Positions 28,201 to 56,726 of a DNA stretch of 64,000 bases are shown here, one piece after another (within the stretch, counting starts at the first letter, position 1; each line of letters begins with the position of its first letter). The stretch comes from Macrocybe gigantea. Taxonomy: Eukaryota > Basidiomycota > Agaricomycetes > Agaricales > Callistosporiaceae. Position numbers and translations under genes: made by a program. Below the pieces are notes generated by a model, which did no database searches, was not told where the DNA came from, and saw only the letters and a program-made list of their open reading frames with translations. The stretch spans positions 1 to 64,000 of the forward strand of contig SJRY01000217.1 of NCBI GenBank assembly GCA_011319805.1, read 5' to 3'.

Positions 28201-28980
28201 CCACTTGTTCAAGCGAGACGGACGTCTGCGTCACGGTGCGCTGGGATTTTTGTTTGGACTGAGATTTGGATCTTGGAACGTTGGGTACAGACATTGCATC
28301 TTTGCCACTACGGGCCTTTTCCTATTCTTCTTGGGGGAGAAATCACCGTCATCGGCCGGTTCGGAGTAGTCGTCCATGGATAGATCTGAATCGCTGAGTT
28401 CATGCGAGTCAGAAGGGCTTCCCACCAACGCTTCATCATCGAATCTCGCTTTAACCGAGTTGCCGAGAATGACGTTAAATCCCATCTCAACCATTCGTAC
28501 CCAAGTATCGTCTTCCAGATGTTCAAGGTGAGGAGTGTAACTCACGAGGCATTTTAAGGCTTTGATGTAATCCAGAGCCACGGGGGCGAAGAGCTCGCGA
28601 TAGTGCACCATCGTCTGCAAGAAGTGTTCAAACATTGCCTTGACAACGCGTTTGTTCATAAATTGAACTGTTCTCTCCGTCAACCATCGTACGGTGCTCG
28701 CGGCTTCTCCAAGTCTCTTCTGCGCAGTAGCCACGGAAGAACTGGAAGATTTGGTTGTGGTTTTCTTCGTTGCGATTAGCCGCTCACTGAGAACGGTCTG
28801 AAAAAGAGCTTGAAAGACGGAAAGCCATGCTCGAGGATCGGAGCTGCCATCTGATTTGAGGTGGAATGTCGTAACGACTCGGTCCTGTGAAAAGACTGTT
28901 CGTACGGAGGCAACGCCTTCTTGTCTTTCCTTGATTTTATCGCTCTTCAAATTCTGGAGAACAGCCTTTAGGTTGCTCAT
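19211..28980 (-). CDS. TEL1: Tel1/ATM checkpoint kinase (PI3K-like kinase), about 3,100 aa
   Basis: Tel1 is the large nuclear kinase that is recruited by MRX/MRN to double-strand breaks and maintains telomeres. The start at 28980 carries the TAN motif ([12 protein letters not shown]), then a long HEAT-solenoid and FAT region. The kinase part has [28 protein letters not shown] (catalytic Asp) and [10 protein letters not shown] (DFG-equivalent DLG). The FATC tail has [19 protein letters not shown] and, across a last intron (19231-19283 or so), YHGWSPLC with stop at 19211-19213. Clear introns include 27555-27601 and one near 25070-25125. The frame breaks six times, at runs near 28317 (T4), 26258 (T3), 23466 (C6), 22591 (T5), 20424 (C3) and 19545 (G4). 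Each is restored by adding one base to the run, so the gene is probably intact in the organism. Confidence 0.9.
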
Positions 28981-29584
28981 GGAGGACTGAGGCTACGCAG
29001 TCGATATTGTAAGTGAGATTAAACAAAGAGATCAGGTCTATCGCACCTCATCGAACAGTCAATGCGTCCAAAGAACCGGGCTTCAAATATGCCTAGCTGA
29101 GGCGGAACGTATTACGACGCGAAATGAAAGCGCGCAAAACAGCAATGCACATCACGTGATATTGACGCCAATCACGATTTGGTCCTATTTGGATGGCCGG
29201 GCCTCATAAAAGCGAGCACGAAATTTTTCTATCACTTGCCGATTTACTTCTCAATGATACCATGAACACACATTTTTTCGTTCTGCAATGCCTCATTCAA
29301 TCTTTTCGATACATTCAACGCTTCCTTCAACATTTGCGGCCCTTTTCTGCCCGAGCAGTGCTACTTACGCCATGCTGTCTCGGTTCTGGTGATGGGCCTA
29401 CAAAATCGTAACCAACCGCCTAATCAACAGTTGGTGGGCATCATAGGACTAATGGATTTCTGTATGGGTGGAGTTCATTTCCTGTATATCTCCCTACATG
29501 TCTTCCCAATGACTACTTTTCATTAAATGTATGCATTGACGATGTATCTACTATCTATTCCAATTGGAAACATTTGATGCTCAC
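28981..29584. other. intergenic: TEL1 promoter / CYS4 3' flank
   Basis: About 600 bp without a supported gene. Both neighbours are on the minus strand, so the TEL1 promoter and the CYS4 3' UTR are here. Confidence 0.5.
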
Positions 29585-33041: not shown

Positions 33042-36000
33042 TTGGTGGATCTTGATACCTCTAGGTCTCAAAACAGTGCAGAGGGACGCCGCCACGGAAA
33101 CCCCACAGAGAAACGCGCATATAGCCCAAGAGCAGGCGCATATAGCCAGTCACAGATCGTAGAAACACCTCAGAAGGGAATGCAAAGAGCTTCCTCCCCC
33201 CTGACACCTGTCTATGAGCTCAACCCCAAAGCACGTCGATCAGGTATGAGTCCTTCAATTTCTCTTACCCTGCGTCCCCAGTTCCCAGTGACCAAGTCAC
33301 TGACATTCCCCGTCGCCCCAGTTGCCAGTTCCCCCAGTAAACACCCCTTGATCGAAGAACTCCCCACGAAGAACTCCCCTGTACCTTCGTCGAGTCGTCC
33401 GTCTGATGTTAAGTCGACGAATGAGACCCAAACCGACCTCTCTCATCCCACTCCTCAGTCTCATACTACTCGGTCTGACTCAGACTCGGACTCCGACATC
33501 GAATCAGCCACCTCATTGATTGCTCATTACACCCGTATCGCCATGTCATCCAACCCCGGTTTCGCTGCAGTTGTTTTCCCTCTCGAGAAGCAGCCCCCGA
33601 AGTTGACCGAGGGTGAAATCTCAGCCAAAGTCATGTGGGAATTCGAAGATGCATGTGTTACGTTCTTCAAAACAAGGACGTGGACGAGGCAGACAAAGTT
33701 AAGAAGGTCCTTAACGCGTTCGGGGATACCCGTATCAAGGACTGGATCCACAACAATCGCACCCGCCTTACCGCACTCTCGTGGGACTCGTTTGTGGCAG
33801 AGTTCAGAAAAAAGTTTTTAATTAAGCACTGGGACCACCAACTTCGTCGGGAGGTCATGACCACGCAACCGAGCACAGACCAGACTTTCCACGACTATGC
33901 CAACAACGCCATCTCACTGAACTCGCTGCTCGGCACGAAGTCCTTGAGCGAGGACACGATGCGTATAGTGTTAGATGCGCACCTCCCACCAGATCTCGCC
34001 AGGAAATGCGATCACAACAAGGCGTTCGACGTCAAGGAGTTTGATGATTGGACCGATACCATGGAGACCCTGGATGATGACTACCGTGCCGAGCTCAAGA
34101 GGGCTCGAGATTTTGCCAGCAACGCCATGTGCATGTCGAAGAAGGCCAAAGTTGGTGAAGCATCCCGTTCTATGTCAGCCCCCTCCAGTTCTACCTCGAC
34201 CCCCGTTCCGCCCACCTCTGGCACTAGTGGGTTGGATGAGAAGATCCCACCATTGACGGAGGAGGAACGCCTCCTGCTAAGTCTCAACCGGGGTTGCTAC
34301 AAGTGTCGGAAGTTCTACGCTGGTCATTTCCACAAGGAGTGCACTTCACGAGTCGAGAGGCCATACGTTCCGCTGACTGTGATGATGGCACTCGAGGCCA
34401 AGGCCAAGTGGGAAGCTGCGAACGGTAAGGCTCCCAGAAAGTCCACCGCGGTCGCAGCAGTCAAAGAGGAACCCGAGGAGGTGGATGCGTCCATCGCCAG
34501 CCATGTCGGGGCAGTACTGCCATCTGCAGTCCTCGAAGCGGACTACAGTTTTGCAACAACAGAGTCGGAGGAGGTGAGCGCTCTGCTATCCGTTCCACAC
34601 CTTCTGTGGACCGCGAAGGTCCACGGAAGGGAGGAGTTTCCCAGTTGCATTTCCACTATGATTGACACCGACGCCCATGTAGTCCTGATTCGCCCGGAGG
34701 CCATCGAACGATTGGGCCTTGCCCATCAAAAGTTACGAAAAACACTGCCTATTTCTGTCACAATCGATGTCAAGTCTGATAAGAAAGTTGTTTCCCGTTT
34801 GTCTGAGTTCGTTTCACTTTCCATTATAACTGAGGATCTCGGTTGGGTAGCCAAGCCTGTAAAGGCAATCATCGCCCCTGGTTTATGTGTTGATGTACTT
34901 TTAGGTCTTCCTTTTATTTTGCACAACGGAATCGTTCTCAATGTAAAGAATCGCACTGCTATTGTAGAAGCCACGGGCCATGACTTGTTGAACCCGTCAT
35001 TGTATAATAAACACCATCTGTTCCGTTCCCTGTCCCCACACCAGATTCGTGTAGAAAAGAAAAAGAATTTCTTGTATCAGCGAAAACACGTAATGCCCCA
35101 GCTTTGCACGGTGGTAGAACGGCGCCGGCAACACTTGATATTGACAGGCACGATCGACGATGAATTACCACCTGACCCGGTCACAGCGGTGTGTGATCGC
35201 ATTGCGGCATTGGCAATATTGGCCGAGCATGAAGAGCGTGAAAAACGTCTGCAGAGTGAGTTCAAGGACATCTTTGAGGCACTACCACACGTACGGGAAC
35301 TCCCCACAGACACCGTCGTGCATATCACACTGAAGGATGCTTCGAAAATGATCGCAACGCGCTCCTATGCTTGTCCCCGGAAATACTGTGAGGCTTGGAA
35401 AATGTTGATATCGCAGCATCTGGAAGCCGGCTGCATTAGACCCTCAGATTCGCCCCACGCATCCCCTTCGTTCCTCATCCCCAAGGCTGACCCGACTGTT
35501 CTGCCACGTTGGGTCAACGACTATCGCCAACTGAACGAAAACTCAGTAGTGGACAGCCACTCGTTGCCTAGAATCGATGATATCTTGAACGATTGTGCCA
35601 AAGGAAAGATCTGGTCTACATTGGATATGACTAACTCATTCTTCCAGATGCGCATGCATCCAGACGATATTCTGTTGACAGCAGTTACGACCCCGTTTGG
35701 TTTGTACGAATGGGTGGTCATGCCTATGGGCTTCAAAAATGCTCCATCGATACACCAGAGACGCGTCACAGTGGCGCTGCGGGAATTCATCGGCAAGATT
35801 TGCCATGTATACCTAGACGACATTATCATCTGGTCAAACTCCCCGGAAGAGCACGAACGACATGTCCGATTGGTATTGGAGGCTCTTCGGCGAGCCTGCC
35901 TATATTGCAATCCTAAGAAGTCAAACTTCTTCCGGGAGCGTGTCAAGTTCCTGGGCCATTTCATCTCTCAGAATGGCATCGAGGCAGACCCGGGTAAGGT

Positions 36001-38368
36001 GGAATGAGTGCTGAACTGGCCTGTTCCTCGTTGCGCTCACGAAGTCCATGGTTTCTTGGGCCTCGTACGATACCTTGCAGTCTTTTTGCTGAAACTGTCG
36101 CCGCACCTCACTCAGCTTCATCGTCTCACAACCAAGGAAGCCCAGAAGTCTTTCCCTGAGTGGACGGCGAAGGACCAGATGGCGTTCGATAGCATCAAAC
36201 ACATGGTGACCGGCCGCGAGTGCTTGACAACAATCGATTATGATTCATTGGATACGAATAACATCTACGTTACTACAGACGTGAGCAACTTTGCCTCAGG
36301 TGGCATTCTTTCATTTGGACCATTGTGGGAGACAGCGCGGCCCGTGGCCTTCGACTCAACGACATTCAAGGGCGCGGAACTGAATTACCCTGTTCACGAG
36401 AAGGAGCTACTCGCTATCATCTGTGTGTTGAAGAAGTGGCGACCAGAACTGTTGGGGGTGCCGTTCCTGGTGTACACTGACCACAAGACCCTGTTGAATT
36501 TCCAGAACCAAAGAGAACTCTCACGACGACAGGCAAGATGGATGGAGTTCTTGTCGCAATATGATCTCCGGTTTGTATATATCAAGGGTAAGGACAACAC
36601 AGTGGCTGACGCACTATCCCGTATCCCCACCGTGGTGGCGTCCGACTCGGTGTCAGCTGACGTACTCGCTCATATGCCTTGGGCAATGGAGAGTAACATC
36701 GAAGGCATTGGGTGGCGCCAGTCGCCTGCATATTCGATGGTCCGGAGGTGTCGACTCGACTCTCTTCGAAGGCGCTAGCCAGGCTGGCTAACTCAGATCC
36801 CACCCCGTCCTCAGGCACGTTCACAGGTGACACCGTCGGTGCGCTACACGAACTGAAGATAGAAGACGACCTCCTCAAGAACATACGTACCGGTTACTCA
36901 TCGGACCCTGGTGTGCCAAGTTGCCAAGGGCGCAGAAAAGTCTCGACTCAGTCACTTCGCGAGATGGTCTCTGGTTCATCGGTGACCAGTTAGTCATACC
37001 TAGGGTCCCCAAACTGCGGGAACGTATCTTTCAGCTGGGCCACGACTTATTGGGACACTTTGGTTTCGACAAGATGTATGGGTCGTTGCGCAAGTCGTTC
37101 TACTGGCCTAACATGAGAAAGGATCTGGAAAGCGGTTACATCCCCAGCTGTGAGGAATGCCAGCGTAACAAGGACAGAATGAAGGCCGTTAACTCACCGT
37201 TGCACCCGTTATCCGTTCCTGGCGATCGTAGGTCATCCGTGACCATTGATTTCATAGGTCCCTTGCCTGAAGAAGACGGTTTCAACGGCATCCTGACAAT
37301 GACAGATCGGCTGGGAGCGGATATAAGGCTTGTCCCTTGCCGGATGGATATGAACGTGCCCAAGTTCACAATGCTGTTTTTCGATCACTGGTACTGTAAC
37401 AACAGGCTGCCTAGTAGCATTATTTCCGACCGAGATAAGCTATTCACATCTGGCTTCTGGTGTTCAGTGACGCAACTTGCAGGTGTATCCTTGAAGATGA
37501 GCTCAGCAAATCATCTGCAGACCGATGGTGCAAGCAAGCACACGAACAAAACAGTCAACCAGTTGCTGCGATACTATGTGGATCATTCCCAGAAGGGGTG
37601 GGTGGCCGCGCTGCCTCGCATCCGCTTCCAAATCATGAACACGATCAATCGGTCTACCGGTTTGTCGCCATTTCAACTGTACATTAGACGCTCACCATGC
37701 GTTATTCCCCATTGCACACCCAAGGCGAAGCTACAGTCGAGGAATACACCACGGATGGAAAGGATGCTGAAGCATTTCTTCAGTGAATGCAGATACTCAC
37801 AATGGATGCACAAGATCAATTACTTGCCGCCAAAATCAACCAGGCATCGACCCGAGTGCTGAAGGGCACAGAACAAATCTACGAAGTAGGATCCCGTGTA
37901 ATGCTGACTACAAAACACTGCCATAGGGAATACCGCAAGAAAGGCGAAGGACACGTCGCCAAGTTTATGCCCAGATTCGATGGACCTTACAAGATCGTAG
38001 AGGCATGGCCAGAACGATCGATTTACACACTGGATCTACCAAATTTGACTAATATCTTCCCTACCTTCCATGCTTCGGAGCTACGACCTTACCACGAGAA
38101 CGATGACGATGCTTTCCCTTCATGATGACATGAACGACCGGGGCCTATCATGATGGGAGATGGACAGGAGGAATGGCAGGTCAAAGAAATCCTTGACGAA
38201 CGAAAACGTGGCCACGGAGTGCAATACCTCATTCGATAGAAGGGATATGGACCGGAGGATGACAGTTGGCTGCCAGGGTGGGAGATGGAGGAGTGCGAGG
38301 CATTGAACGATTGGATCGCGAAGAAGAATTGGACTACGACACCGACCGCCCAACCTCCCCGCCGGTAG
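33042..38368 (+). pseudogene. gag-pol of chromovirus element 1 (disrupted)
   Basis: Start uncertain; the open frame begins near 33042. Gag (about 33200-34400) ends in the knuckle CYKC...GHFHKEC. The protease reads MIDTDAHVVLI, with Asp in place of the Gly of the D-T/S-G motif (34664-34684). RT has DYRQLNENSVVDSHSLPRID and YLDDIIIW (about 35810). RNase H has TTDVSNF and DHKTLLNF. Integrase has an HHCC finger (HDLLGHF, CEECQRNK) and Asp residues in TIDFIGPLP and SDRDKLF, but the third acidic residue is replaced: DGASKHTNK instead of DGASECTNK in element 2. The chromodomain (WQVKEILDERKRG onward) is interrupted by TAG at a conserved Trp (YLIR-stop-KGYG, 38236-38240). TGA at 36005-36007 also interrupts pol. 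A one-base slip at the A4 run 33669-33672 is probably a sequencing error. Confidence 0.85.
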
Positions 38369-39899: not shown

Positions 39900-42800
39900 A
39901 TGCCTTGGAGTCGTCAGTACTCTCCCAGCTCCCCTTCAGCGAGTTGGATGACACCGGCTTTCAGACGGCTCTCACGGAGGATTATCTGCCCATTCTATCC
40001 CAGCCCACTTCCACTTCATCTTCCGCCACTCTTACCCCTCCTACCATGCTAGATACAGCACATATACCTACTCCTACCAAACAGGAGACAGATTCTGGTT
40101 CCTCTGGTCAAGAAGGCATGCATATAGTTGATCATCAGACTCTGAATTCTCCTTCGAAAAAGTCCAACTCATCTAGCTCCTCTAATTCCGACTACAGTCC
40201 CCCCCCAAACTGAAACCCTGCCCACCTCTGTCCGACCCTCTCCAGCCTGATATAGGAATGTCTCCCGCCATCGCTGAATGTATCTGTGGAGGACCTAAGA
40301 AGCCTCCCAAGATCACTGGCAGTGAGCTCACTCCTCACATGGTATGCGAATTCGAGCTCGCCTGCACCAATTATTTCACACAGAAGTCCATCGCTGCAGC
40401 TGATCAGGTCCCCACTATTCTCGGTTGCTTCGAAGACATGCAAATCGAATCTTGAATTGCTGCTCACCATTCCTCGTCACCCTTTCCTTCGCCGCATTCA
40501 TGAATGAGCTCTGCTTGGTTTATCTGCCCACAGGTTGGAATACCGACATCCATCGCTCTATGAGAACGTCGCTCTTGACGCCCAAGATGAACTTTTGGGC
40601 TTGGGCGAATGACAGAATCAATGAAAACATCGTTTTGTCCGGTACTAGCTTCCATGAAAATACAGATGCCTTGTGCACCACTCTCGATTCGCTTCTGGAT
40701 AATGAACTCTGTCAACATTGCATTGCCACTGGTGTCAATGCCAAAGTCACCGCGGCACTGGATCCCATTACCAACCAGGCTTCGGTGGATGCACGTTTAC
40801 GCATCTGGCTCGAGGAAGTCCACAAGGTCGCAGATGCGAGAGCTTTCGAGTTCAAACATGCCCGCAACACCACAGAGGAAGTGAGCTGGGCCACTAAACG
40901 TCCTGCCTTGTCTGGTCCTTCTCACAACAGCAACACGTCGCACAACAACCAATCGAACAAACAGGCCTCCGGCAGTTCGTCAAACAAAGGCAACTTCATA
41001 CCGCTTCCAGGACTGACCGATGCAGAACGCGACCTCCTGAAAAAGCATGACAGGTGCATGAAATGTCGAAGAGGCTACGCAGGTCATTTCTCGAAGAACT
41101 GCAGTAATGGTTTCCCAGATGGCAGGTCGTACAAACCTTTGACCAAGAAACAGATGCTTTGCGATAGAGAACATCAGACCAACCACCCTTCCAAGTCATC
41201 GAACTATAACAACCAGCCTGTCGCCGCAACTACTGCCAGCATTGCTGAGATGTCTGATGACAATGATGCCCCTGTCGCCGTTCTCGGTGAAGGGTCCAAG
41301 TCGGAAGATGAGAACGATTCTGACATGAGCATACCCCTCACAGCTTCCCATATGAAATGGGAATGCTCCATTTCTGGACCACTAACTGATGAACCATTGA
41401 CAGTGACCAGTATCCTGGACACTGGTGCACACGTTGTGCTAATCGATGATGAACTTGTTTCCTGCCTCAGATTACATCGCCGCTGCTTATACAAACCCTT
41501 TTGTTGTTCCGTTGCAATGCCCAATAGCCTGTCAAAGTCCACCACTAGAAGTCTCTCTGAATATGTTATTCTGTCTGTTTCGTCGTGTAATCAAGCCTGG
41601 CATTCCCTCACCGTGAGAGCACTTGTCATTCCCAAACTGTGTACACCCATACTATTTGGTCTCCCATTCCTGAATTGTAACAAGATCGTCTTAGATACTG
41701 ATTGTTGTACAGCTATTGCAAAAGATACTGGTTTTGATTTATTGCACCCTGAGCCGATTAAACCCAAAACTCCCCAATTGTCTCCACCGAGACAACGACA
41801 GGTCAACATACTGTTGGCTCGAAAAGTGGCACAACTGAAAGCAGCGACACTTGCAAAACTGAAAGAAAAAACAGCTGGATCATGTACTCCAGGCAGCGAG
41901 TGTTCGGATCACATCATTGCCGCACTGGTAAAGGAGCATATCGATATTCTGGCTTATGAGCAACAGCTGCAAAACCTGAACAACAGTGTCCGCAAAAGTT
42001 TCAAGGACATTTTTGATGCGATCCCACATGCCAACGAACTGCCCACTGAGGTGTACACCTGCATAAACATGAAAGACGCTTCGAAACGAATTGCTACCCA
42101 TACCTATTCATGTCCATGCAAATACCGAGAGGCCTGGAAGATGTTGATTCAACAACACTTAGATGCCGGTCGTATCCACCCTTCATCCTCGTCTTCTGCC
42201 TCTCCGGCATTCATCATACCGAAAGCAGATACTACCATCCTGCCATGGTGGGTGAACGACTACCGTCAATTGAACAGCAACACCGTTACCGACAGCCACT
42301 CATTGCCATGGATTGACGACATTTTGGCCAACTGCGGAAAAGGAAAGATCTGGTCGAAGATTGACATGACGAACAGTTTTTTCAAACCAAGATGCGACCG
42401 AGTGACATTCCACTGACGGCGGTATTGACTCCATTCAGTTTGTATGAATGGGTGGTCATGCCGATGGGACTGAAGAATGCACCGGCGATACACCAGTGCC
42501 AGGTGACAGCTGCACTACATACGTTGATAGGTCGATGTTGCCATATTTATCTGGACGACATCATTATATGGTCAGATTTGGTCGAACAACACCAGGCTGA
42601 CGTCGAAGCAGTGCTGAAGGCACTTAGAACGAACCGCCTTTACTGCAACGCCAAGAAGTTGAGATTCTTTCAGACGTCCATCGATTTTTTGGGACATCAC
42701 ATCTCGCAGGCCGGGATCGAAGCCAATGGACACAAGGCACAATGTATATTAGACTGGCAGGTGCCCAACTGTGCGAAGGATGTCCGAGGTTTTCTAAGCT

Positions 42801-45037
42801 TAGTGCATTATCCGTCCGCCTTCCTGCCAGGCATTGCAAAACACACTGGGGTACTGGACACGCTGACATCGAAAGATGCTGAATTCTGTTGGTCCGGTTG
42901 GCAAACTCATCACCAGGTGGCGTTCGATGCATTAAAAGATGCTGTCATTTCACGAGAATGCTTGACAACGATTGATTACAGCCTCATGCCAGAAAATAAA
43001 GTTTTCATGACGACGGATGCTAGTGATTTTCAGATGGGTGCCATACTGTCATTCAGAAAAACTTGGAAAACAGCTCGGCCTGTCGCTTTCGATTCACAGA
43101 CTCTGAAAGGTGCACAACTCAACTACCCAGTACATGAAAAAGAGTTGCTTGTGATCATTCAGGCCCTGACTAAATGGAGGACCAACCTTTTGGGTATTCT
43201 GTTCTTGGTGTACACGGACTACCGGACGCTCAAAAATTTTCATAAACAGAAAGATCTGAGCCAACGACAAGCACGATGGATGGAGTTCCTGTCCCAATAT
43301 GATTGCAACATTGTATATGTACAGGGTAAGGACAATGCAGGAGCCGATGCCCTCTCTCGGTCTCCCTTGCCTGTACAAGAATCCAGTACAGATGCTGAGA
43401 AGCTAGCACAACCTCTTTTTCACTGGATAGCTGATGACGATGAAGTCATTGCCTGCATAGCCGTGGATGTGGGTCTGATTCACGCTGTCGGTGTGCTTGT
43501 GAATGAAGCGATATCGGAAACAGGACTGAGACCAGAGCAGATGACCATTTCAGCTGACCCCGAATTTCTCCAGGCAATTAAGGATGGTTACGCTGCGGAT
43601 AAGTGGTGCCAGAAGATTATTGACTCAGCACCTTTGCCGGATGGATTGTCGCTTGAGAACGGTCTGCTGTATGCACATGGGTGACTTGTCATCCCATGGG
43701 TCATGAACATCCGGGAAGAACTGTTCAGATTGGCACATGATGTGCTCGGTCATTTCAGTTTCGAGAAATCTTATGGTTCGCTGCGTGACTTGTTTTACTG
43801 GCCGAACATGAGGCATGATTTGGAACGAGCATACGTGCCTGCTTGTGCAGATTGCCAACAGAACAAATCGACTACAACTAAGCCTTGCGGTCCTCTTCAT
43901 CCGTTACTGATTCCGGATAGACGCGGAGATTCCGTAGCTTTGGATTTCATTGGGCCGTTACCAGAAGATGATGGATACAACTGCATTTTGTCCATAACCG
44001 ACCAACTCAGAAGTGATGTTTGTCTGGTGCTGACAAGGACAGACATCTCGGCTGAACAGTTGGCAGGCCTATTTTTCGATCATTGGTACTGTGAAAATGG
44101 ATTGCCTATTGACTTGATTTGCGATCAGGACAAGTTGTTCGTCAGCAATTTTTGGAAGGCGCTACATAGGATCACAGGCATGAAGATCAACATGTCAACG
44201 GCCTTCCACCTGCAGTCAGATGGTGCCAGCGAATGCACAAACAAGACCATTAATCAATCGTTACATTTTCATGTCGAGCGAAATCAGAAAGGCTGGAAGG
44301 CAGCACTCCCTAGAGTGCGTTTCGCCATTATGAATACTGTTAATGCCTCTACAGGATTCTCGCCATTCCAATTGCGGATGGGTCATTCGCCAAGGATCAT
44401 TCCACCACTCGTCATTTCAAACTCTGGATCATTAGACGATATTCGAGCAAATGAAGTGATTCGATGCCTAGAAACAGACGTTCAAGAGGCACAGGATAAT
44501 TTACTACATGCTAAGACTGACCAAAGTATCCAAGCTAATAAAAACCATTCTGATGACTTTCCTTTCACTATAGGGTCGCAGGTTCTGCTCTCGACGCTCA
44601 ACTGCCGATGACAGTTTCTTAATGCAGACAAAAAACGTGTCACCAAGTTTTTACCTCGTTTCGATGGCCCATACAAAGTGACAGCGATTTCGGAAAGGCA
44701 CTCAACAGTGACCCTCGATTTGCCTAACTCACTGAATGTTTTCCCTGTTTTTCACATGTCTCAAGTGCGACCTTTCATCGAAAATGACAAGACACTTTTC
44801 CCAGGATGGCAGCTTGAAGAACCTGAACCGGTCATCATGCCTGATGGCTCGGAAGAGTATCTTGTCGAATGGATTTTGGACGAACGACGCGTGGGACGTG
44901 GTTGGCGATACTTGGTTCATTGGAAAGGTTATGGGCCTGAAGAAGATCGTTGGATGGCGGGCTCAGAGATCGATGATGTCGAGGTGTTGGACCATTGGTT
45001 GGAGGAACACCTGCACCCCCCTGCTCAGCCAGGATGA
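39900..45037 (+). pseudogene. gag-pol of chromovirus element 2 (few disruptions)
   Basis: The probable start ATG at 39900 needs one extra C to enter the gag frame (ESSVLSQLPFSELDDTG). The zinc knuckle is near 41055-41105, the protease DTGAHVVLI at about 41420, and RT has DYRQLNSNTVTDSHSLPWID and YLDDIIIW (about 42550). RNase H has TTDASDFQMGAIL. The integrase finger has HDVLGHFSFEKSYGSL and CADCQQNKS; core ALDFIGPLPEDDGYN, CDQDKLF, DGASECTNKT. The chromodomain YLVEWILDERRVGRGWRYLV and HWKGYGPEEDRW ends at 45037. Two in-frame TGA stops (43682-43684, HG-stop-LVIP; 44609-44611, NCR-stop-QFL) both sit where Arg is expected. Frame breaks near 40213, 40455 and the T6 run 42377-42382 look like missing run bases. 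The coding potential is the best of the three elements. Confidence 0.88.
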
Positions 45038-49533: not shown

Positions 49534-49541
49534 GTGGTAGT
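49534..49541. repeat. hAT target-site duplication, left copy
   Basis: GTGGTAGT, identical to 56719-56726; 8 bp is the hAT superfamily length. Confidence 0.95.
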
Positions 49542-49558
49542 TAGTGTTGCCGCGGCTC

Positions 49559-49720
49559 GGCTAACCGCAAGTCGGCTCTGGTGAGCCGCGACTTCGGGTC
49601 TGACTCGGCTCAGCGGGTAAAGCCGAGCCGATTTATTCAGCTAAGCCTGTTTGGGCCGACTAAACTGGTCACCAAGCCGGCTCTCGGACCTGTTCAGCGA
49701 CAGCAAAATGCTGTTGAGGC
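49559..49720. repeat. hAT left subterminal repeats
   Basis: Repeated CGGCTC/GAGCCG and close variants on both strands, mirrored at 56560-56701. Probably transposase-binding sites by analogy with Ac/Ds and other hAT elements. Confidence 0.6.
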
Positions 49721-49818
49721 ACATGCGTCGTCATCGTTCGGCTTATGTGGGGAGTCGAAATGTGCTGGTGTAGTGTAGAAAAAGTAACCTGTATTTCGTT
49801 CGTGTTAAATAGACAATA

Positions 49819-52800
49819 TTAGTTTGTTTCGTTCATCTCCTCGTCATAATACTGCCCCGTCATTCGTAAAATGTCATCCATGATCGATGAATCAGCATCA
49901 CCAGCCAGTCTGGCAAGCAAATCGCCGTCACTAGGCATCAAGTCCGAAATCGGAGTAAGGAGGCCTTGCGTGAAATTGATGCGATCCTTCTTGTATGCGA
50001 ATTTGAGTAACTGAAGGGCTTCCATAAGCGCTGGATGAATGCGATTGCGTTTTTTTGTGTCCGTTTCGCTGGCCGATGAGAATATTCGCTCTGACGGAAC
50101 AGCTGAGGCGGGTACAGAGAGATAGTCGAGTGCCATAGCGTAAAGGGTAGGAAAGACCGTTTCGTTCGCCTGGATAAATTCATGAGAGGTCATTCGAATA
50201 TTCAATATTTATCAACTTACCTGCCAAAATCGAAGTGGAACAATTTCACCTATATTATGCAATGGGCCCATGACGTACCGTTGAAATTCTTCCTCGACGC
50301 TCTGGGTTCCGGTCGAGATGCCACGTCCTTCTGTCACCTTCAACGTCAGTTTCTGCCAGGCGAGTTGTCGTGGAGCGACGCGACGTGGCTCAGCAGGGGC
50401 ATTGCTCGCGATCCGCGTGACTGGTTGATTACGCCGATATTCCATCATCTACTTGAATATCAGCAGTCGATCAAATAGAAACACAACCGAACGTACTGTT
50501 TCCTTGATCGCTTTCTCAGCCTCGTCAGCGTATTCCCGTTCCCAGTGGACTCGAAACCACGACATCCGCACAGTCGGATTTAGAACTAGACAATGCTGTC
50601 AGTAAATGTCCACGTCACAATGGGCTACTCACATAATGCGATTGCATAGGCTCGGGTATCGTCGATTTTTCGGTAGTACTTGATAGCGTAGTCCAAACCG
50701 ACATCAATGAAAGGACCAAGATGCGGTTTCTTCTCGCGGAGCTCTTCCCAGAGAGTCATGAATGTCTCTATGGCAGGGATTGTATCACATAGTGTAGGTA
50801 CCCGCTCAAACGATAAGACATTGTACACGTTATGTGGCACCTAAGGAGGAATAAATGAAAAAAGTCTGTTAATAGAATGCTCCAGCTACAATACCTCGAG
50901 GATGCTCTTAATATCGACCAAAACCTGCCATTCACATGACGTTAAACGTAGTTTGTGAAGAGCTTTCTGTTCCGGCAACGACAAAAAGACTTCGATCGGC
51001 TATTTGGGATTCATTGTAAGACTGTGAATCCGTGACCAAGTTGGATTGGTAATACATACCTGACGGAGATAAAGGAATCGCTCAACCATTAGGAACGTTG
51101 AATCCCATCGTGTCCTGACATCGAGGAGAAGCTCGTAGACGGTTAATAATAGGCCTTCGTCGTCCTTGAATCTTCCGCGTGCGATGCCATCTTGAATGAC
51201 TTGAAAGAACGCTTCTTTTCGTTGACCAGATGAACGCACAGCACAGCAAACATTCCGGACCAAGGCGAGCGGATTACGAGCCACGGCTTCCTCATACGTT
51301 TGACGAGCTTCGTTATCCCAGCTAGGAGGGGGTGGAATGGAGTGCAGAATACTCTCATCGAAATCTTGGTCGTTACTTGGATCTGAGGTATCCAAGAAAA
51401 CGTTCGGGATCGCGGATGCGTCAAGGGGAATGGTAAAAGCATCGGATGTTGACGGTTCAATACAAATGTTGGCGCGTTCTTCTGGTTTGCTCGAGAACAT
51501 CTTAATGACATGTGTCACACAAATGTGCACAACATGAGGAAAGCATCGTATACGATTCTCTCGGTGGTGAAATGGGATATCGCGTTGTCGGAGGAGGGAC
51601 TCGAGATGTTGAAGAGTAGTCACGTTGTTGGACGCGTTGTCAAGAGTGAAAAGTCCAACCTACTTAAATGTTAGAGCTAGCACTTCTTGTATGTAAAATG
51701 GCATTACCTTGACGGTTACTCCGACGCGGTCCAAAAGAGGGAGGACGACTCTAGCAAGACGTTCTCCGGAGTGTGTGCCACGCAGGTGATGAAAAGCAAT
51801 CAGGGAACACTCGAGACTGAGAGCACGACTGTCACTGTCGCGGCTTATCCAATGCGCTGTGATAGCCAAGAACGGGCGTAAAGATGACGAGGACCAAATA
51901 TCCATCGTGAAGTTCACTTTTCCGGGAGCGTTCTGAAAAATCTGATGAATAACAAGACGGAAATATGTAAATCAAAAACAAACCGCAAAGTTCTGCCTTA
52001 ATTCAGGTAGAAGACGTGTACTCGCTGCATAATCGATTCCCTTATCTTTGTCCGATGAGGAATGTCCGCATCGCGCAGTGCTTCCCGCAGAAGGAGGAGC
52101 AGCGTCCGGAACTCTGGGCATTCAACGACGCTGATGGACTAAACGGGAATAACAGTCAGTGTCAGGCTGTCATGTACAAACTATGGGCCTACCTGATCAT
52201 CGACGACGATGAATCTGACGAGATACTCATGAAACCTCTCGAGCGTGAAAGGTAGTCTGTTGGCGTCTAGTGCTGATAAGGCTGGAGCGTTCCTTGTATC
52301 GGCACTCTGAACTTTCCATCCCTTACTTGCGCAAACATTGAGGTACTCGTCCCGGTGCTTGCTGAACAAGTGGTCGCGAAGGGGAGAGTTCGAAGTCGTG
52401 GAACTAAAGACCTTGTTGATTCCGTTCTTCCTACAATATGGCAAGCATTAGGGAGATGAATTCAGGGCTATTGAGATCGACTTACTTGCACAAAAGGCAC
52501 ACGGTGCCTACGGTCTTGTCCGATTTATCGAAGAAGTGTTGTATATCGTAGGCGATATTTCGTCCTTTGGACTTCGCAGGGCCCGTGAAATTGACGACTG
52601 GAAGGGGTGAAGAGCCGGCTTCGGTTGCCAGACTCTCTGACGGTGGTGGCGCATTAGTAGAACCTTCATCGTCGCTGTACCGCTGGCCATCAACGCCTCC
52701 ATAGTCGAACTCCTCACCAGAGGAAAGGTCGGGGGGAGATGCAGCTTGGCGTCTAGTGGGACGAGGCAGCAGAAGGGTCTGAGGCGGAAAGATCTCAGGC

Positions 52801-53054
52801 GGAATAGGACGCGGAGTGGGATCCGCTGAGGAAATCGTAGAAGGCTGGAGAGAATGTGGAGCAGACTGCTGGGCTGCCAGACGAGTGGTGGGGTGAGTTG
52901 GCCGTGAAGGGATAGCCCGCTGTCTCCTTGTCTTTATTCCAGCGCCACCTTCAGTTTCCGGAGTGTAAGGTTCGGGTGTAGAATCGATGGGAACTGTTGG
53001 TGGAGCATCCGTCGATGGCTCTGTAGTCGCTTGGCGTCGTGGTTTGCGAGGCAT
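49819..53054 (-). CDS. hAT-family transposase
   Basis: Cuts and pastes the element through an RNase-H-fold DDE active site. The start MPRKPRRQATTEPSTD at 53054 is chosen after a non-conserved open leader. A long disordered basic/proline N-terminus leads to a BED zinc finger (VCLLCK joined across the intron 52431-52485 to a KNGINKVF...HLFSKH segment). Next come FIVVDDQ/VECPEFRTLLLLLREAL, the catalytic-region blocks NFTMDIWSSSS and LFTLDNASNNVTTLQ, CFPHVVHICVTHVI, TRWDSTFLMVERFLYLRQ, and the C-terminal dimerisation domain YLSVPASAVPSERIFSSASE (about 50090). At least seven introns. One slip near 52035 is consistent with a lost C. Otherwise it appears intact and possibly active. Confidence 0.88.
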
Positions 53055-53461
53055 TACTGACTGGGTGGAGATGGCACAAGTCCGAAACGCTCGCCTGGTC
53101 ATATAAGGTGGAACATGCCACCTGATGACGCGGACGGGAGGGATTGAATGCGGTATGCATGCTACATCCTGCATGGCAAAGATAAGAGGCTCGATTACGT
53201 TTAGAGAGTATGCTGGCAAGGGACGTACTTGAATGTTCCCCTCCTCGAGGTCCTCCCTAAGCTGCATGTATGGTGGTGCTTTATCATCATGCGTTCGGGT
53301 TATCTGACCTACTTGGGCGTCATTGACCCATTTATCCTCCTCATTGTCCGTTAACTTCTCAGACAGTCACTTCATTTCATGACATTCAAGTTACTCAGGT
53401 ACTATCTAATGTAAATCGACGCCTAACTACAATGGGATGGCAACTTGGTACACTATGAGGA

Positions 53462-53672
53462 GGGATGGTGGTGGTAGCGGACGAGGAGTGGAAGCGTGCG
53501 AAAGCGGAGTTGGGCGCATCATAGGGTAGTGGGAAGTTGAAACGTCGGGTATTGCCCGGGACCGAGTCCCGACTCGGGCAATACCCGACGTTTCAACTTC
53601 CCACTACCCTATGATGCCGCCCAACTCCGCTTTCGCACGCTTCCACTCCTCGTCCGCTACTACTACCATCCC
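53462..53672. repeat. Long inverted repeat (hairpin) between the two divergent hAT genes
   Basis: Arms 53462-53558 and 53575-53672 (97 and 98 bp) are complementary except for two mismatches and one single-base gap; the spacer is 16 nt and itself contains CCGAGT/ACTCGG. It lies between the 5' ends of the transposase and the SPT5-like gene. No target duplication flanks it, so it is more likely an inverted duplication within the transposon than an inserted MITE. Confidence 0.9.
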
Positions 53673-53866
53673 CCTTCGTGGTGTGGTCGTCCACTCCCGG
53701 TAAGTCAACGTTCGTTCTAGTAGTCAGTAAATAGTTATTGCAATGAAAATGAGTGAGAAAAAAAATGAAAGGCAAAGAAGAACGCGTGAAATCAGTCATT
53801 GCACGACGTACGCGTCGTTCGCAATGATCATTGCCGTCGTTTTACCCATCGGTTTCGTGCGGCAGG

Positions 53867-56420
53867 ATGCTGATAATGATTCTTAGCCTCTACGCCGCAC
53901 TCAAAGTTGCCGCAATGCCCCGATACGTTTCAGACGCAGCTTTACGATTCTTCGACGTTGAGGCGGAGGTGGACGACCAAAATGACAGTGATGATGAGGA
54001 GGAGGACGATCTTGGTGAGCTGGACTGACTCTGTGAAATGACACAAGATAACTATTCTATCTCCAGACGACTTCATAGACGATATGATCCCTGATGTGCA
54101 AACTGGTCCCTCCGCACGCCGGTTACCGGAGGACAATGAAAACGAGGACGGCTTTGAAAGCCTGCTGTCGCGCATCGCACAGTACGCGCATCAACCTCGA
54201 AATACGTCTCTGTGTCCGCTGGACGAAGAAATCAGTGTGGGCGTTCCGTTGGAGGGCATATTGAAAGACGATGACTATCCATTATGGCGTATTCCTTGCC
54301 GCGTAAGTGGACCTTAAGCATTTCGATGGCTACTAACGTTCTCTGTGTAGATTGGCGTGGAGGATCAGGCGTTGATGTCGTTATTCCTGGCAGCCAAACC
54401 TGAGCATCAACTCCGTGCTGCTTTCCATAGGGGTCTACCTCGCGGCTCCATCTATGTAGAAGCAACGATGAATCAAGCCCTCCGCCAGCTCCTCAAAATA
54501 ATCCCAGGTGTTTCTCATCGTACCCTGGAAATCAACGCAAAGCAGATCGACGTAAAGGATTGGCAGCGGACCTTGACGGTATTGGAGCCTGTGGATACTC
54601 CTACAGTCGGGTCATGGGTGAGGGTTCTCCGGGGCCGGTACAAGGGCGACGTAGGCTTAATCCGCAACTGTGCCGGCCCCTTCGTAGGTGTCTTGCTGAT
54701 ACCTCGCCTGACTTTCAACGATCCGCCCCACCCGAAGAAGAGGAAACGATCAACTATTCCTCCCGTCCCCAAGCTATTCGATCCCTCCGCTCTCCCCGAA
54801 CGCTTACACCTTCGGCTCAGGCACATGGAGGAGGATCAAGTATTCCAGCTTTGTGGTGTGAATTTGGAACACGGACTCCTGTTGAAGGACTTCGACTCTC
54901 ATTCCGTGACTCGTGCTGACGTTCACTTGTCCAGTGAGGCGTTTCTGACATACCATGTCAGCGGTCATCCGGCGGTCCAGACTGCCAAGTTCATATGTCC
55001 CGCAGAGTGGAAATTTGCAGAGCAGGAAATTGTCGACGTCACATCCTCAGGCAAGCGAGGAACTATTCGCTCTCTTTCTGAGAATGGCGTTGAAGTAGAT
55101 TTGGAAAATGGGGAGGGCTTGGTCAACGTTCCCTGGCGTGATCTTCGCAAAGCGATTGTGGCAGGAAATTTCGTTGAAATGACGGGCGGACCACGTATAG
55201 GCCAAAAGGCGTGGGTCGTGGGCGTGGTTGATACAACTGTGCACCTTCTTGAGCAGCCGGATGGCCTGGCACAATCCATGGGGAGCAACTTAGTTGTAAG
55301 GACGCCTGCGATATTTCTATCACTATTTCTGATATCTTTCCCAGTCGTATTCCATGCACATCAATTGCCTAAGGATTATTGAGCCAGAAAATCTGCTAAA
55401 CCCGCCACCGCCGCGCGAAACGACGCAGGACCGAGAGTACATTCCATGGAGGGGACGTGAGGTGTTGATAACGAAGCAGCACCACTCCATGAAGGGCGCT
55501 CGCGCTATGGTCCAGGACGTCATATGCGATGAATCTACTGCAAGCGGCATCAAATTAGTTGTCCAACTTCTGCGCTTCAATCCCGCCGCCCCATTTCAAA
55601 ACTACATGTTCGATTATGACGACGTGGTTGATCCACCGTAAGTTCTGGTTGCATTGGCATAAGTCCTTGCTGATTCGAATCTAACAGGTCCGGTCAAAAA
55701 CTTTTCACCTGCCTTCCACATGGCAATCCTCGATTTAAGCCTCGCAATCACCCCGAGGCATCAAGCTCTTCTCATTCACTGGCCCCACCCACACTTGGGA
55801 TGACAGGTGGTCAAACACCGATGCCAAACTTTGGCTTGTCGAGCCCAGCCTGGAATCCCAGCGCGTGGATGCCCTATTCACCTCTCCCTGCACTGACTCC
55901 GCGACAACCTGCTCCCAGCCTGCATCCCAGTTCCACAAGCCAACAATCCGAGGCGCAGCATTTTTTGCTCGATCCACGTCTTGTCGGTCGTATGGTACGG
56001 GTCAAGGTGAACGGCGGCGGATACAACAAGAAGCTGGCAATCTCGATTGTATCCGATGAAAACGGCAATGTCTCTCTGCGACACCAGCACTACAAAACGT
56101 CGGAAAATATCCCAACGCAATGGGTTACGGTTGAACCGGCTCATCCAACTCGCGACAACGGTCTTTTAGTGGTCGTGAGAGGCGAGCACCGAGGTAAATA
56201 CGTGCGTCGCATCCATCACCGGTATGATGATGACACGGCAATCATCCGGTGCGCCGTCATGAACCGAGACGAGAGCGGCGAGGACAGCCTGTCAGGAGAG
56301 ATAGTCGAGTTGACTTCTGCGGACTTATGCCAGGGTTACGAGACGCCAGAGCAAAAAAAGATTAACGATGGACTTATGCAGGCAATGCGCACCGAAGCTC
56401 GAAAGTTACGTGCCAAATAA
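53867..56420 (+). CDS. SPT5-like transcription elongation factor (NGN and KOW domains), transposon cargo
   Basis: Spt5 clamps RNA polymerase II through an NGN domain (bound by Spt4) and KOW domains. Start is 53867 or, more likely, 53915 (MPRYVSDAALRFFD). An acidic N-terminus (DDEEEDD) is followed by an intron from about 54014, then PLWRIPCR-IGVEDQALMSLF and RGSIYVEATMNQALRQLL (NGN). KOW1: VGSWVRVLRGRYKGDVGLI then IPRLTFND. Further KOW-like segments: REVLITKQHHSMKGARAMV, VGRMVRVKVNGGGYNKK, GLLVVVRGEHRGKYVRR. A vestigial CTR-like stretch is GLSSPAWNPSAWMPYSPLP. Stop at 56418-56420; five or so introns; no obvious frame breaks. Sequence is diverged from canonical Spt5, so it is a paralogue, not the housekeeping copy. 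Role within the transposon is unknown. Confidence 0.85.
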
Positions 56421-56559
56421 TAGCTGTCAATACTACATCTAATTTCTAGGACTACGATACCACGACATTTAGTATTACCATAATTCTTGGAAGTATACAC
56501 GTAATCTAATGTGCATTTTTACTTTTTCTTCTCTGGAATGCCCAGCTCCATCAGTTCAG

Positions 56560-56701
56560 CGGCTGTAGTCGACTCCAACCGACTTGGCAAACGAGCCGCG
56601 GCTGTTCGGTTCCCCTGAGCCGACGTTAGCGGTTATTGCCGATCCGGCTCGGCTTCGGCTTGGCCCCAACTCGGCTCCGGTTCTTAGTCGGTTCCGAGTT
56701 G
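56560..56701. repeat. hAT right subterminal repeats
   Basis: Dense GAGCCG/CGGCTC and CCGACTT variants immediately inside the right TIR, mirroring the left end. Confidence 0.6.
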
Positions 56702-56718
56702 GAGCCGCGGCAACACTA

Positions 56719-56726
56719 GTGGTAGT
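56719..56726. repeat. hAT target-site duplication, right copy
   Basis: GTGGTAGT, identical to the left copy. Confidence 0.95.

What the first reader, a model, noticed from the sequence alone, without database searches (positions are those of the whole stretch)
49542..56718. A hAT transposon that carries its own SPT5-like elongation-factor gene
Between perfect 17-bp TIRs and a perfect 8-bp target duplication lie two divergent genes: a hAT transposase, and a complete intron-bearing gene with an Spt5 NGN domain and several KOW domains. Both look intact, bar one slip in the transposase, while the surrounding retroelement is riddled with stops. DNA transposons rarely carry a full host-type regulator of Pol II elongation. 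It might help the element be transcribed in repressed, methylated chromatin, counter silencing, or act in transposition by binding polymerase or Spt4. The function is inference; the co-residence inside one TIR pair is visible.
Basis: partly seen in the sequence, partly recalled or inferred. Interest (0 to 1): 0.93.

Follow-up and report, generated by a model that had tools for sequence, protein, structure and literature searches.

The report
Transposons carrying their own SPT5 gene
In a mushroom-type fungal genome, a jumping gene family carries its own diverged copy of SPT5, the protein that helps RNA polymerase keep moving; the same gene sits beside a second, unrelated transposase, which suggests these parasites use it to stay switched on.

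Summary
Confirmed and extended. Window 49542-56718 is a TIR-bounded hAT transposon (17-bp TIRs, 8-bp TSD) with two head-to-head genes: a hAT transposase and a 768-aa SPT5-like protein. It is not a one-off capture. Of 12 near-identical SPT5-like copies in this 41-Mb genome, 10 keep the whole reading frame, and no cargo-free copy of this hAT was found. Ten of 17 copies examined have perfect TSDs, at 9 sites. A decayed hAT relative (60% aa) still carries the gene and the right end. A second SPT5-like family (56% aa identity, silent sites saturated, so purifying selection) lies head-to-head with a Plavaka transposase, an unrelated superfamily. In both families a 208-235-bp palindrome separates the genes; its core occurs 58 times in the genome, always at an SPT5-like copy. 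The proteins form one clade, 100/99, apart from housekeeping SPT5. All 60 substitution sites among young copies are C>T, 57 in CpG, as expected of methylated DNA. Best reading: a portable anti-silencing module, an Spt5 paralogue that keeps Pol II productive on its own silenced element. That mechanism is inference; no expression or binding data exist here.

The parts
49534..49541 (.). 8-bp target-site duplication, left copy (GTGGTAGT)
   Evidence: empty-site match in 14 of 14 loci
49542..49558 (+). left 17-bp TIR (TAGTGTTGCCGCGGCTC)
49819..53366 (-). hAT transposase gene region, several exons (open pieces 52482-53366, 52181-52447, 51660-51971, 51000-51659, 50625-50840, 50212-50448, 49819-50208); exon joints not modelled
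   Evidence: ORFs; PF05699 E 8.8e-13 in 49819-50208; piece 51000-51659 at 17 genomic loci
53450..53684 (.). palindrome between the divergent genes: outer arms 67 nt 91% complementary, inner arms 43 nt 100%, 16-nt loop (53559-53574) that in this copy is inverted, and one base shorter, relative to the 11 others compared
53531..53551 (+). palindrome core GGGAAGTTGAAACNTCGGGTA (mirrored at 53582-53602, minus strand); 58 genomic matches at up to 2 mismatches, all at SPT5-like copies, control 0
53700..53886 (+). putative 5'UTR intron of the SPT5-like gene (GGTAAGT donor and TTCTYAG acceptor shared with family 2)
   Evidence: sequence and alignment; prediction only
53915..56420 (+). SPT5-like gene, coding exons 53915-54014, 54067-54302, 54351-55295, 55345-55637, 55688-56420; 768 aa
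56702..56718 (-). right 17-bp TIR
56719..56726 (.). 8-bp target-site duplication, right copy

Best explanation
A hAT DNA transposon encodes, besides its transposase, a dedicated Spt5 paralogue. Shown: the cassette (palindrome + intron-bearing SPT5-like gene) jumps with the hAT, has been kept under purifying selection, is also found head-to-head with a Plavaka transposase, and belongs to a clade separate from housekeeping SPT5. Inferred: the protein is made from the divergent control region, replaces or joins host Spt5 on Pol II (through NGN and KOW contacts, perhaps with host Spt4), and keeps Pol II elongating over its own methylated, silenced element, so that transposase mRNA is still produced. 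More speculative: the palindrome, which places the same sequence at the start of both genes, is the DNA address through which the factor or its activator acts, as ops does for RfaH or noncoding target repeats do for VANC. Expression, Pol II binding, anti-silencing and targeting are all inferred.
For: Multi-copy with cargo: 12 copies at 99-100% aa over exon 3 with no stop, 10 of 12 with the complete ORF; 10 of 17 copies with both ends and a perfect 8-bp TSD, 9 distinct sites; empty sites for the window (14 of 14 loci) and for 6 of 8 other sites. No cargo-free hAT copy among those found. The older hAT relative C40 aligns from the middle of the palindrome to the last base of the element at 72% DNA, 60% aa. 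Purifying selection F1-F2: 754 codons, 56% aa identity, differences 239/178/454 at codon positions 1/2/3, 148 of 209 fourfold sites differ, dN 0.34, dS saturated. Second superfamily: Plavaka transposase PF18759, E 2.6e-15, head-to-head. F1-F2 homology runs from palindrome to stop codon; the 3' flank aligns no better than shuffled. Core motif only at cassettes, 58 hits, control 0. Separate clade 100/99. C>T at 60 of 60 substitution sites outside the loop, 57 in CpG. Chromatin relevance of Spt5: its CTD restricts heterochromatin in S. pombe (PMC10659198, abstract read).
Against: No RNA or protein data. Base-level constraint on the whole palindrome is not shown: its F1-F2 transversion rate (0.191) equals that of the introns (0.194), and F1-C40 (0.112) is above the introns (0.080). 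The half-palindrome leader RNA folds no better than shuffles (z +0.96 and +1.01). The methylation-like decay shows that copies do not escape methylation over time. Plavaka copy C268 and more distant Plavakas (C245, C227, C275) have no SPT5-like match. Only 2 of 14 family-2 loci tested have a complete frame in this assembly. The protein lacks a C-terminal repeat array. The AlphaFold model is of moderate quality.
Confidence: 0.5

Rival explanations
1. Decoy or dominant-negative: the protein displaces host Spt5 from Pol II (or titrates Spt4 or silencing partners) and so breaks transcription-coupled silencing, rather than boosting elongation of its own element. It would act like an anti-KTF1.
For: Only one degenerate unit remains where SPT5 has its repeat array (F2 TPAWNPSSW, F1 SPAWNPSAW, read; compare S. 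pombe TPAWNSGSK, PMC12716044 passage); changes of the Spt5 CTD alter heterochromatin in S. pombe (PMC10659198 abstract). Similarity to the RDM3/KTF1 chain 8hyj. Argonaute pieces present.
Against: Truncating the CTD in S. pombe enhanced heterochromatin (PMC10659198 abstract), which would hurt the element. The cassette-only palindrome core suggests action in cis, not a global decoy.
Confidence: 0.2
2. Transposition accessory: the protein binds the palindrome or the ends and helps transposase or excision repair directly (as second gene products do in some CACTA and Mutator elements; recalled).
For: Co-resident with transposase in the hAT copies found; head-to-head control region with a palindrome; shared by two DNA transposon superfamilies.
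Against: The palindrome is internal, not at the ends; the recognisable domains are transcription-elongation domains; hAT and Plavaka transposases differ, so one shared cofactor is less likely.
Confidence: 0.15
3. Passenger: a captured SPT5 gene carried without function.
For: Transposons do pick up host genes (general knowledge); 2 of 12 young F1 copies and 12 of 14 family-2 loci tested have broken or incomplete frames.
Against: Purifying selection over a saturated silent divergence; presence in two hAT families and beside one Plavaka family; no cargo-free hAT derivatives found.
Confidence: 0.08
4. Two separate captures from one unknown, constrained host SPT5-like paralogue of Agaricales, each recent, explain the F1-F2 similarity; the constraint was on the host gene.
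For: Related proteins exist in other Agaricales with unknown genomic context.
Against: Every match other than canonical SPT5 belongs to F1, F2, the C40 hAT relative or a C211 fragment (unplaced), so no host member of the clade was seen here; the palindrome is shared too and C40 shows long hAT residence.
Confidence: 0.07

Closest known systems
TET/JBP-carrying fungal DNA transposons (Kojima 2025, PMC12730594; outline, term passages and section 4.2 read)
   Same: A regulator gene is shared among unrelated DNA transposon superfamilies (including hAT and Plavaka), frames mostly not disrupted, proposed to counter methylation silencing.
   Different: Cargo is an RNA polymerase elongation factor, not a DNA dioxygenase; Spt5, KOW, NGN and elongation do not occur in that main text. 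In the TET pairs compared there, no palindromic sequence marks the ends of the shared part; here a palindrome is part of the shared unit. This genome has no Tet_JBP match over the cut-off.
VANDAL transposons and VANC anti-silencing proteins (PMC10398659, abstract read)
   Same: Transposon-encoded protein that counters silencing through noncoding regions of its own elements.
   Different: VANC is not an Spt5 homologue (recall); its targets form tandem repeats, here a palindrome; anti-silencing is shown there, inferred here.
RfaH / ops (PMC9765446, abstract read)
   Same: Specialised NusG/Spt5-family paralogue beside the housekeeping one, serving silenced, acquired genes; a candidate short DNA address lies at the start of its genes.
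   Different: Bacterial; binding to ops and counter-silencing are measured. Here no binding is shown and the candidate address is a long palindrome.
KTF1/RDM3 of plant Pol V (PMC10229537, abstract read) and meiotic SPT5 of Paramecium (PMC12716044, passages)
   Same: Diverged Spt5 paralogues used for transcription of silenced or noncoding DNA.
   Different: Host genes that serve DNA methylation or lncRNA; not borne by transposons.
Housekeeping SPT5
   Same: Acidic N-terminus with a FxDxEAEVDD-like motif, NGN, KOW1 and further KOW-like modules.
   Different: Separate clade, 28% identity to this genome's own SPT5 exon, no repeat array, own C-terminal domain with the signature LLVVxRGEHxGKxxRxI.

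Membership tests
hAT superfamily (the window element) | 8-bp target-site duplication | tested here: met
   Perfect in 10 of 17 copies examined, 9 distinct sites; C324b has both TIRs without TSD, C218a and C218b none, the other four show one end only
hAT superfamily (the window element) | Short TIRs of the hAT type (YARNG start, recalled) | tested here: met
   17-bp perfect TIR TAGTGTTGCCGCGGCTC
hAT superfamily (the window element) | hAT C-terminal dimerisation domain | tested here: met
   PF05699 E 8.8e-13
hAT superfamily (the window element) | BED zinc finger and RNase H-like catalytic core | tested here: inconclusive
   No such Pfam match in the separate exon pieces scanned; full transposase not assembled
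Plavaka (family-2 element) | Plavaka transposase domain | tested here: met
   PF18759 E 2.6e-15
Plavaka (family-2 element) | TIR pair and TSD enclosing transposase and SPT5-like gene | tested here: inconclusive
   Right boundary sharp: C38 and C276 part after a last run of 227 identical bases; inverted arrays near both ends of the C276 stretch; the left end was not reached
SPT5 (orthologue of the housekeeping factor) | NGN + KOW architecture | tested here: met
   AlphaFold model of exon 3 pLDDT 79, pTM 0.57, moderate
SPT5 (orthologue of the housekeeping factor) | Falls among fungal SPT5 in a tree | tested here: not met
   8 transposon-type rows of 31 on one side of a branch, 100/99; own SPT5 sits with Mycena and Coprinopsis SPT5
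SPT5 (orthologue of the housekeeping factor) | C-terminal repeat array | tested here: not met
   single degenerate unit, by reading of the sequence
SPT5 (orthologue of the housekeeping factor) | Binding to Spt4 and Pol II | not testable with these tools
   needs biochemistry
RfaH-like specialised NusG/Spt5 with cis element | Coexists with a housekeeping paralogue | tested here: met
   own SPT5 at C50:437708, NGN E 5.8e-18
RfaH-like specialised NusG/Spt5 with cis element | Shared DNA element at the start of target genes, exclusive to them | tested here: inconclusive
   Core motif only at cassettes; transcription start sites unknown; no extra base-level constraint over introns
RfaH-like specialised NusG/Spt5 with cis element | Sequence-specific recruitment and counter-silencing | not testable with these tools
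   needs ChIP and expression assays
TET+ DNA transposons (Kojima 2025) | Encodes a TET/JBP dioxygenase | tested here: not met
   No Tet_JBP match over the cut-off in the whole genome; two stop-bearing remnants elsewhere

The most novel reading that the evidence does not exclude
A eukaryotic counterpart of RfaH/ops evolved inside selfish DNA: an Spt5 paralogue and its palindromic DNA address form a portable cassette that unrelated transposon superfamilies have acquired to transcribe themselves through methylated chromatin.
Probability: 0.3. Interest if true: 0.95.

Novelty: new variant of a known kind. Interest (0 to 1): 0.85.

Why it matters
Transposons are known to carry DNA-demethylation-type or anti-silencing genes; an elongation factor would mean that the elongation step itself is contested between host silencing and transposons in fungi. 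It would also give a natural, separable Spt5 paralogue with a candidate DNA address, making Spt5 targeting in eukaryotes directly testable, and it offers an origin for some otherwise unexplained 'KOW domain' proteins of Agaricales genomes.

Tried and rejected
Rejected: one-off passenger capture. Rejected: an RNA hairpin in the half-palindrome leader as the conserved feature (z about +1, i.e. less stable than shuffles on average). Not upheld: strong base-level constraint on the whole palindrome beyond introns. Tried: TET/JBP in the same genome (two matches below the cut-off, each with stops). Tried: whole-protein homologue search, swamped by canonical SPT5 (only 7993 candidates scored); a C-terminal region and a trimmed profile (7992 candidates scored) found the close relatives. 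Tried: fold comparison, not available. The genomic context of relatives in other fungi was not fetched: the genome collections on hand are described as prokaryote, phage, plasmid and viral, plus this one genome.
Full report
What was given. The finding claims a hAT transposon at 49542-56718 with an SPT5-like gene as cargo.

The element. TIRs are 17 of 17 complementary and flanked by GTGGTAGT on both sides. The host DNA looks like a Gypsy-type retroelement (recalled from reading the protein); its other copies keep the uninterrupted site: 14 of 14 fetched loci match the joined flanks across the point at 95.0-97.9%, one of them over 622 of 800 bases. The joined host frame is open for 225 of the 266 codons read, with stops at two later codons. 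The genome searched has 41.2 Mb in 333 contigs.

The cargo gene. Five coding exons, all GT-AG, give 768 aa. The PDB sequence search aligns residues 7-404 with Spt5 chain 8qsz_Y (E 8e-17; S. pombe by recall) and residues 8-264 with RNA-directed DNA methylation 3, 8hyj_W (E 1e-10; Arabidopsis by recall). Pfam: KOW E 2.3e-7 (over its cut-off), NGN E 0.023 on exon 3 alone, GPKOW_C E 5.9e-5 on exon 5 (both under). Family-2 NGN is over the cut-off at 7 loci, E 9.6e-4 each. AlphaFold of exon 3 gave pLDDT 79, pTM 0.57: moderate. The housekeeping SPT5 is elsewhere (C50:437708, NGN E 5.8e-18).

Copies. Left ends: 16 found (a capped list). SPT5-like matches: 45 rows, of which 12 at 99-100% over exon 3 with no stop. 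Of 17 copies examined for ends, 10 have both TIRs and a perfect TSD (C50's left TIR has one mismatch); C322 and C323 share one site, so 9 sites. C324b has both TIRs but no TSD; C218a and C218b have changed TIRs and no TSD; C134's right end was not found; C220, C242 and C324c show one end only. C242 repeats C243's right flank and C324c repeats C322's left flank, so some 'copies' may be two haplotypes or duplications. Empty sites were found for 6 of 8 further sites tested together; C48 and C146 gave none among 40 scored candidates of 1073. Complete ORF: 10 of 12 young copies (one of them 767 aa); C98 and C215 each have a one-base loss in the coding part; C134, C218a and C218b are broken.

No cargo-free form found. 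The transposase piece 51000-51659 is found at 17 loci; 16 carry the SPT5-like gene and the other (C324, from 106422) is cut by its contig end. The first transposase exon and the right end (14 of 14) agree. No short internally deleted derivative was seen. These searches score best candidates only, so very diverged or very short derivatives are not excluded.

Age and decay. Young copies were compared in two parts, 12 rows each, 13 copies in all, over 5.6 kb; the middle 1.57 kb was not compared this way. Outside the inverted loop, 60 sites differ by substitution, and 60 of 60 are C>T on one strand or the other: 57 in CpG, 2 in CpC, 1 in CpA; counted per copy this is 74 cells, 66 in CpG. A few deletions of one or three bases also occur. 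One copy, C98, holds 27 of the 74 cells. This fits very recent spread plus deamination of methylated cytosine. DNA-methylase and Argonaute pieces are present.

A third, older hAT family. C40 (locus L054) aligns with the window element from the middle of the palindrome to its last base at 72% DNA, 60% aa; it carries stops, and its end reads like a decayed right TIR. Its transposase was not found, and its upstream part beyond the fetched bases was not seen; its TSD was not tested. So the cargo and the hAT right end have stayed together over a long divergence.

A second superfamily. Family 2 (up to 58% aa over exon 3) is seen at 15 loci by my count of the rows. In C276 the opposite-strand neighbour is a Plavaka transposase (PF18759, E 2.6e-15). 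Plavaka transposase rows close to this one (83% or more in their best row) lie at 13 loci, besides a 34-aa scrap at the start of C120; 12 of the 13 also have SPT5-like rows, C268 has none; SPT5-like loci C205, C66 and C234 show no such transposase row. C276 and C38 agree at about 99.8% in the pieces compared and part sharply after a last run of 227 identical bases, which marks a right boundary; inverted arrays are seen near both ends of the C276 stretch. The left boundary was not reached, so the TIR pair of this element is not shown. Complete frames: 2 of the 14 family-2 loci tested; the C276 copy itself has a one-base loss.

Selection. F1 against F2: 754 codons, 56% aa identity, differences 239/178/454 at codon positions 1/2/3; 148 of 209 fourfold sites differ; NG86 dN 0.34, dS not computable (saturated), YN00 failed. 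Homology extends from the palindrome to the stop codon; the 3' flank is at shuffled level and the transposase side only slightly above it. Thus the shared unit is palindrome + gene.

The palindrome. F1 53450-53684; F2 97-nt perfect arms with a 14-nt spacer. The core GGGAAGTTGAAACNTCGGGTA gives 58 matches at up to two mismatches and none for the reversed pattern. Comparing by eye, all 58 lie at 30 SPT5-like loci, 29 of them about 750-825 bases upstream of exon 3, one (C146, old) further off because of inserted DNA. C40 has a mutated version, found by alignment and not by the pattern. In the window copy the loop is inverted, and one base shorter, relative to the 11 others. Against over-reading: the F1-F2 palindrome aligns far better than shuffled, but so, more weakly, do the introns, and transversion rates do not show it as more constrained than introns; the half-leader RNA has no unusual fold.

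Relatives. After two searches that avoided the acidic N-terminus, relatives are Panaeolus cyanescens CVT24_002508 (30% over 760 positions), Laccaria amethystina K443DRAFT_15198 (39%), Stygiomarasmius scandens VKT23_017859, Dendrothele bispora (P0076, and P0039 and P0057), and four unnamed metagenome proteins. In the tree, F1, F2 and six of these named proteins form one side of a branch at 100/99, 8 rows of 31; the others are canonical SPT5 and two Pisolithus proteins on a long branch outside the group. Ten rows have unusual composition and some branches are long. Their genome context could not be read.

Mechanism. Spt5 binds Pol II and supports elongation (established). In S. pombe its CTD restricts heterochromatin (PMC10659198, abstract). 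RfaH, a bacterial paralogue, counter-silences operons after recruitment at ops (PMC9765446, abstract). VANC proteins of VANDAL transposons reduce silencing by binding noncoding regions of their elements (PMC10398659, abstract). I infer that the transposon SPT5 makes Pol II productive on its own silenced element, the palindrome being the control region of both genes. Rivals are a decoy that breaks transcription-coupled silencing, and a transposition cofactor. None is tested.

Print status. Searches for papers joining Spt5 or KOW with transposon cargo or fungal transposons listed none whose title or shown abstract describes it; I read listings, not those papers. Kojima 2025 (PMC12730594: outline, passages, section 4.2 read) describes the same traffic for TET/JBP, including hAT and Plavaka, and its main text does not contain Spt5, KOW, NGN or elongation. 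The library holds open-licence papers only. Hence 'new variant of a known kind'.

Noticed in passing
C38, C164, C235, C274, C276, C3, C66, C241, C234, C242 (own genome): 10 of 15 family-2 (Plavaka) SPT5-like loci lie within about 9 kb of a contig end, so they may sit in subtelomeres or break the assembly there.
   Followed up: partly
window 53559-53574: The palindrome loop is inverted, and one base shorter, in this copy relative to the 11 others compared, as if the stem had flipped.
   Followed up: yes
G000:C217:64232-64402, just right of the window: A piece 63% identical to the family-2 Plavaka transposase.
   Followed up: no
L069:439-2259 (C276), minus strand: 606-aa frame with a GATA zinc finger (PF00320, E 2.2e-7) in a stretch with many repeats, mostly inside the region shared by C276 and C38; possibly a further cargo gene of the Plavaka element.
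   Followed up: no
C37:18386-18856 and C244:28007-28477: Two identical-scoring, stop-bearing Tet_JBP remnants under the cut-off.
   Followed up: no
window 33617-37862 and 40404-44611: Gypsy-like retroelement frames (RT, RNase H, integrase by eye), not tested.
   Followed up: no
window 21074-28992, minus strand: Several long frames that look like one large Tel1/ATM-like gene (by recall only).
   Followed up: no
P0075 Panaeolus cyanescens, residues 745-1292: The SPT5-like protein is annotated with a long extra C-terminal part of unknown kind (no Pfam match at E 0.1), perhaps a fused neighbouring gene.
   Followed up: no
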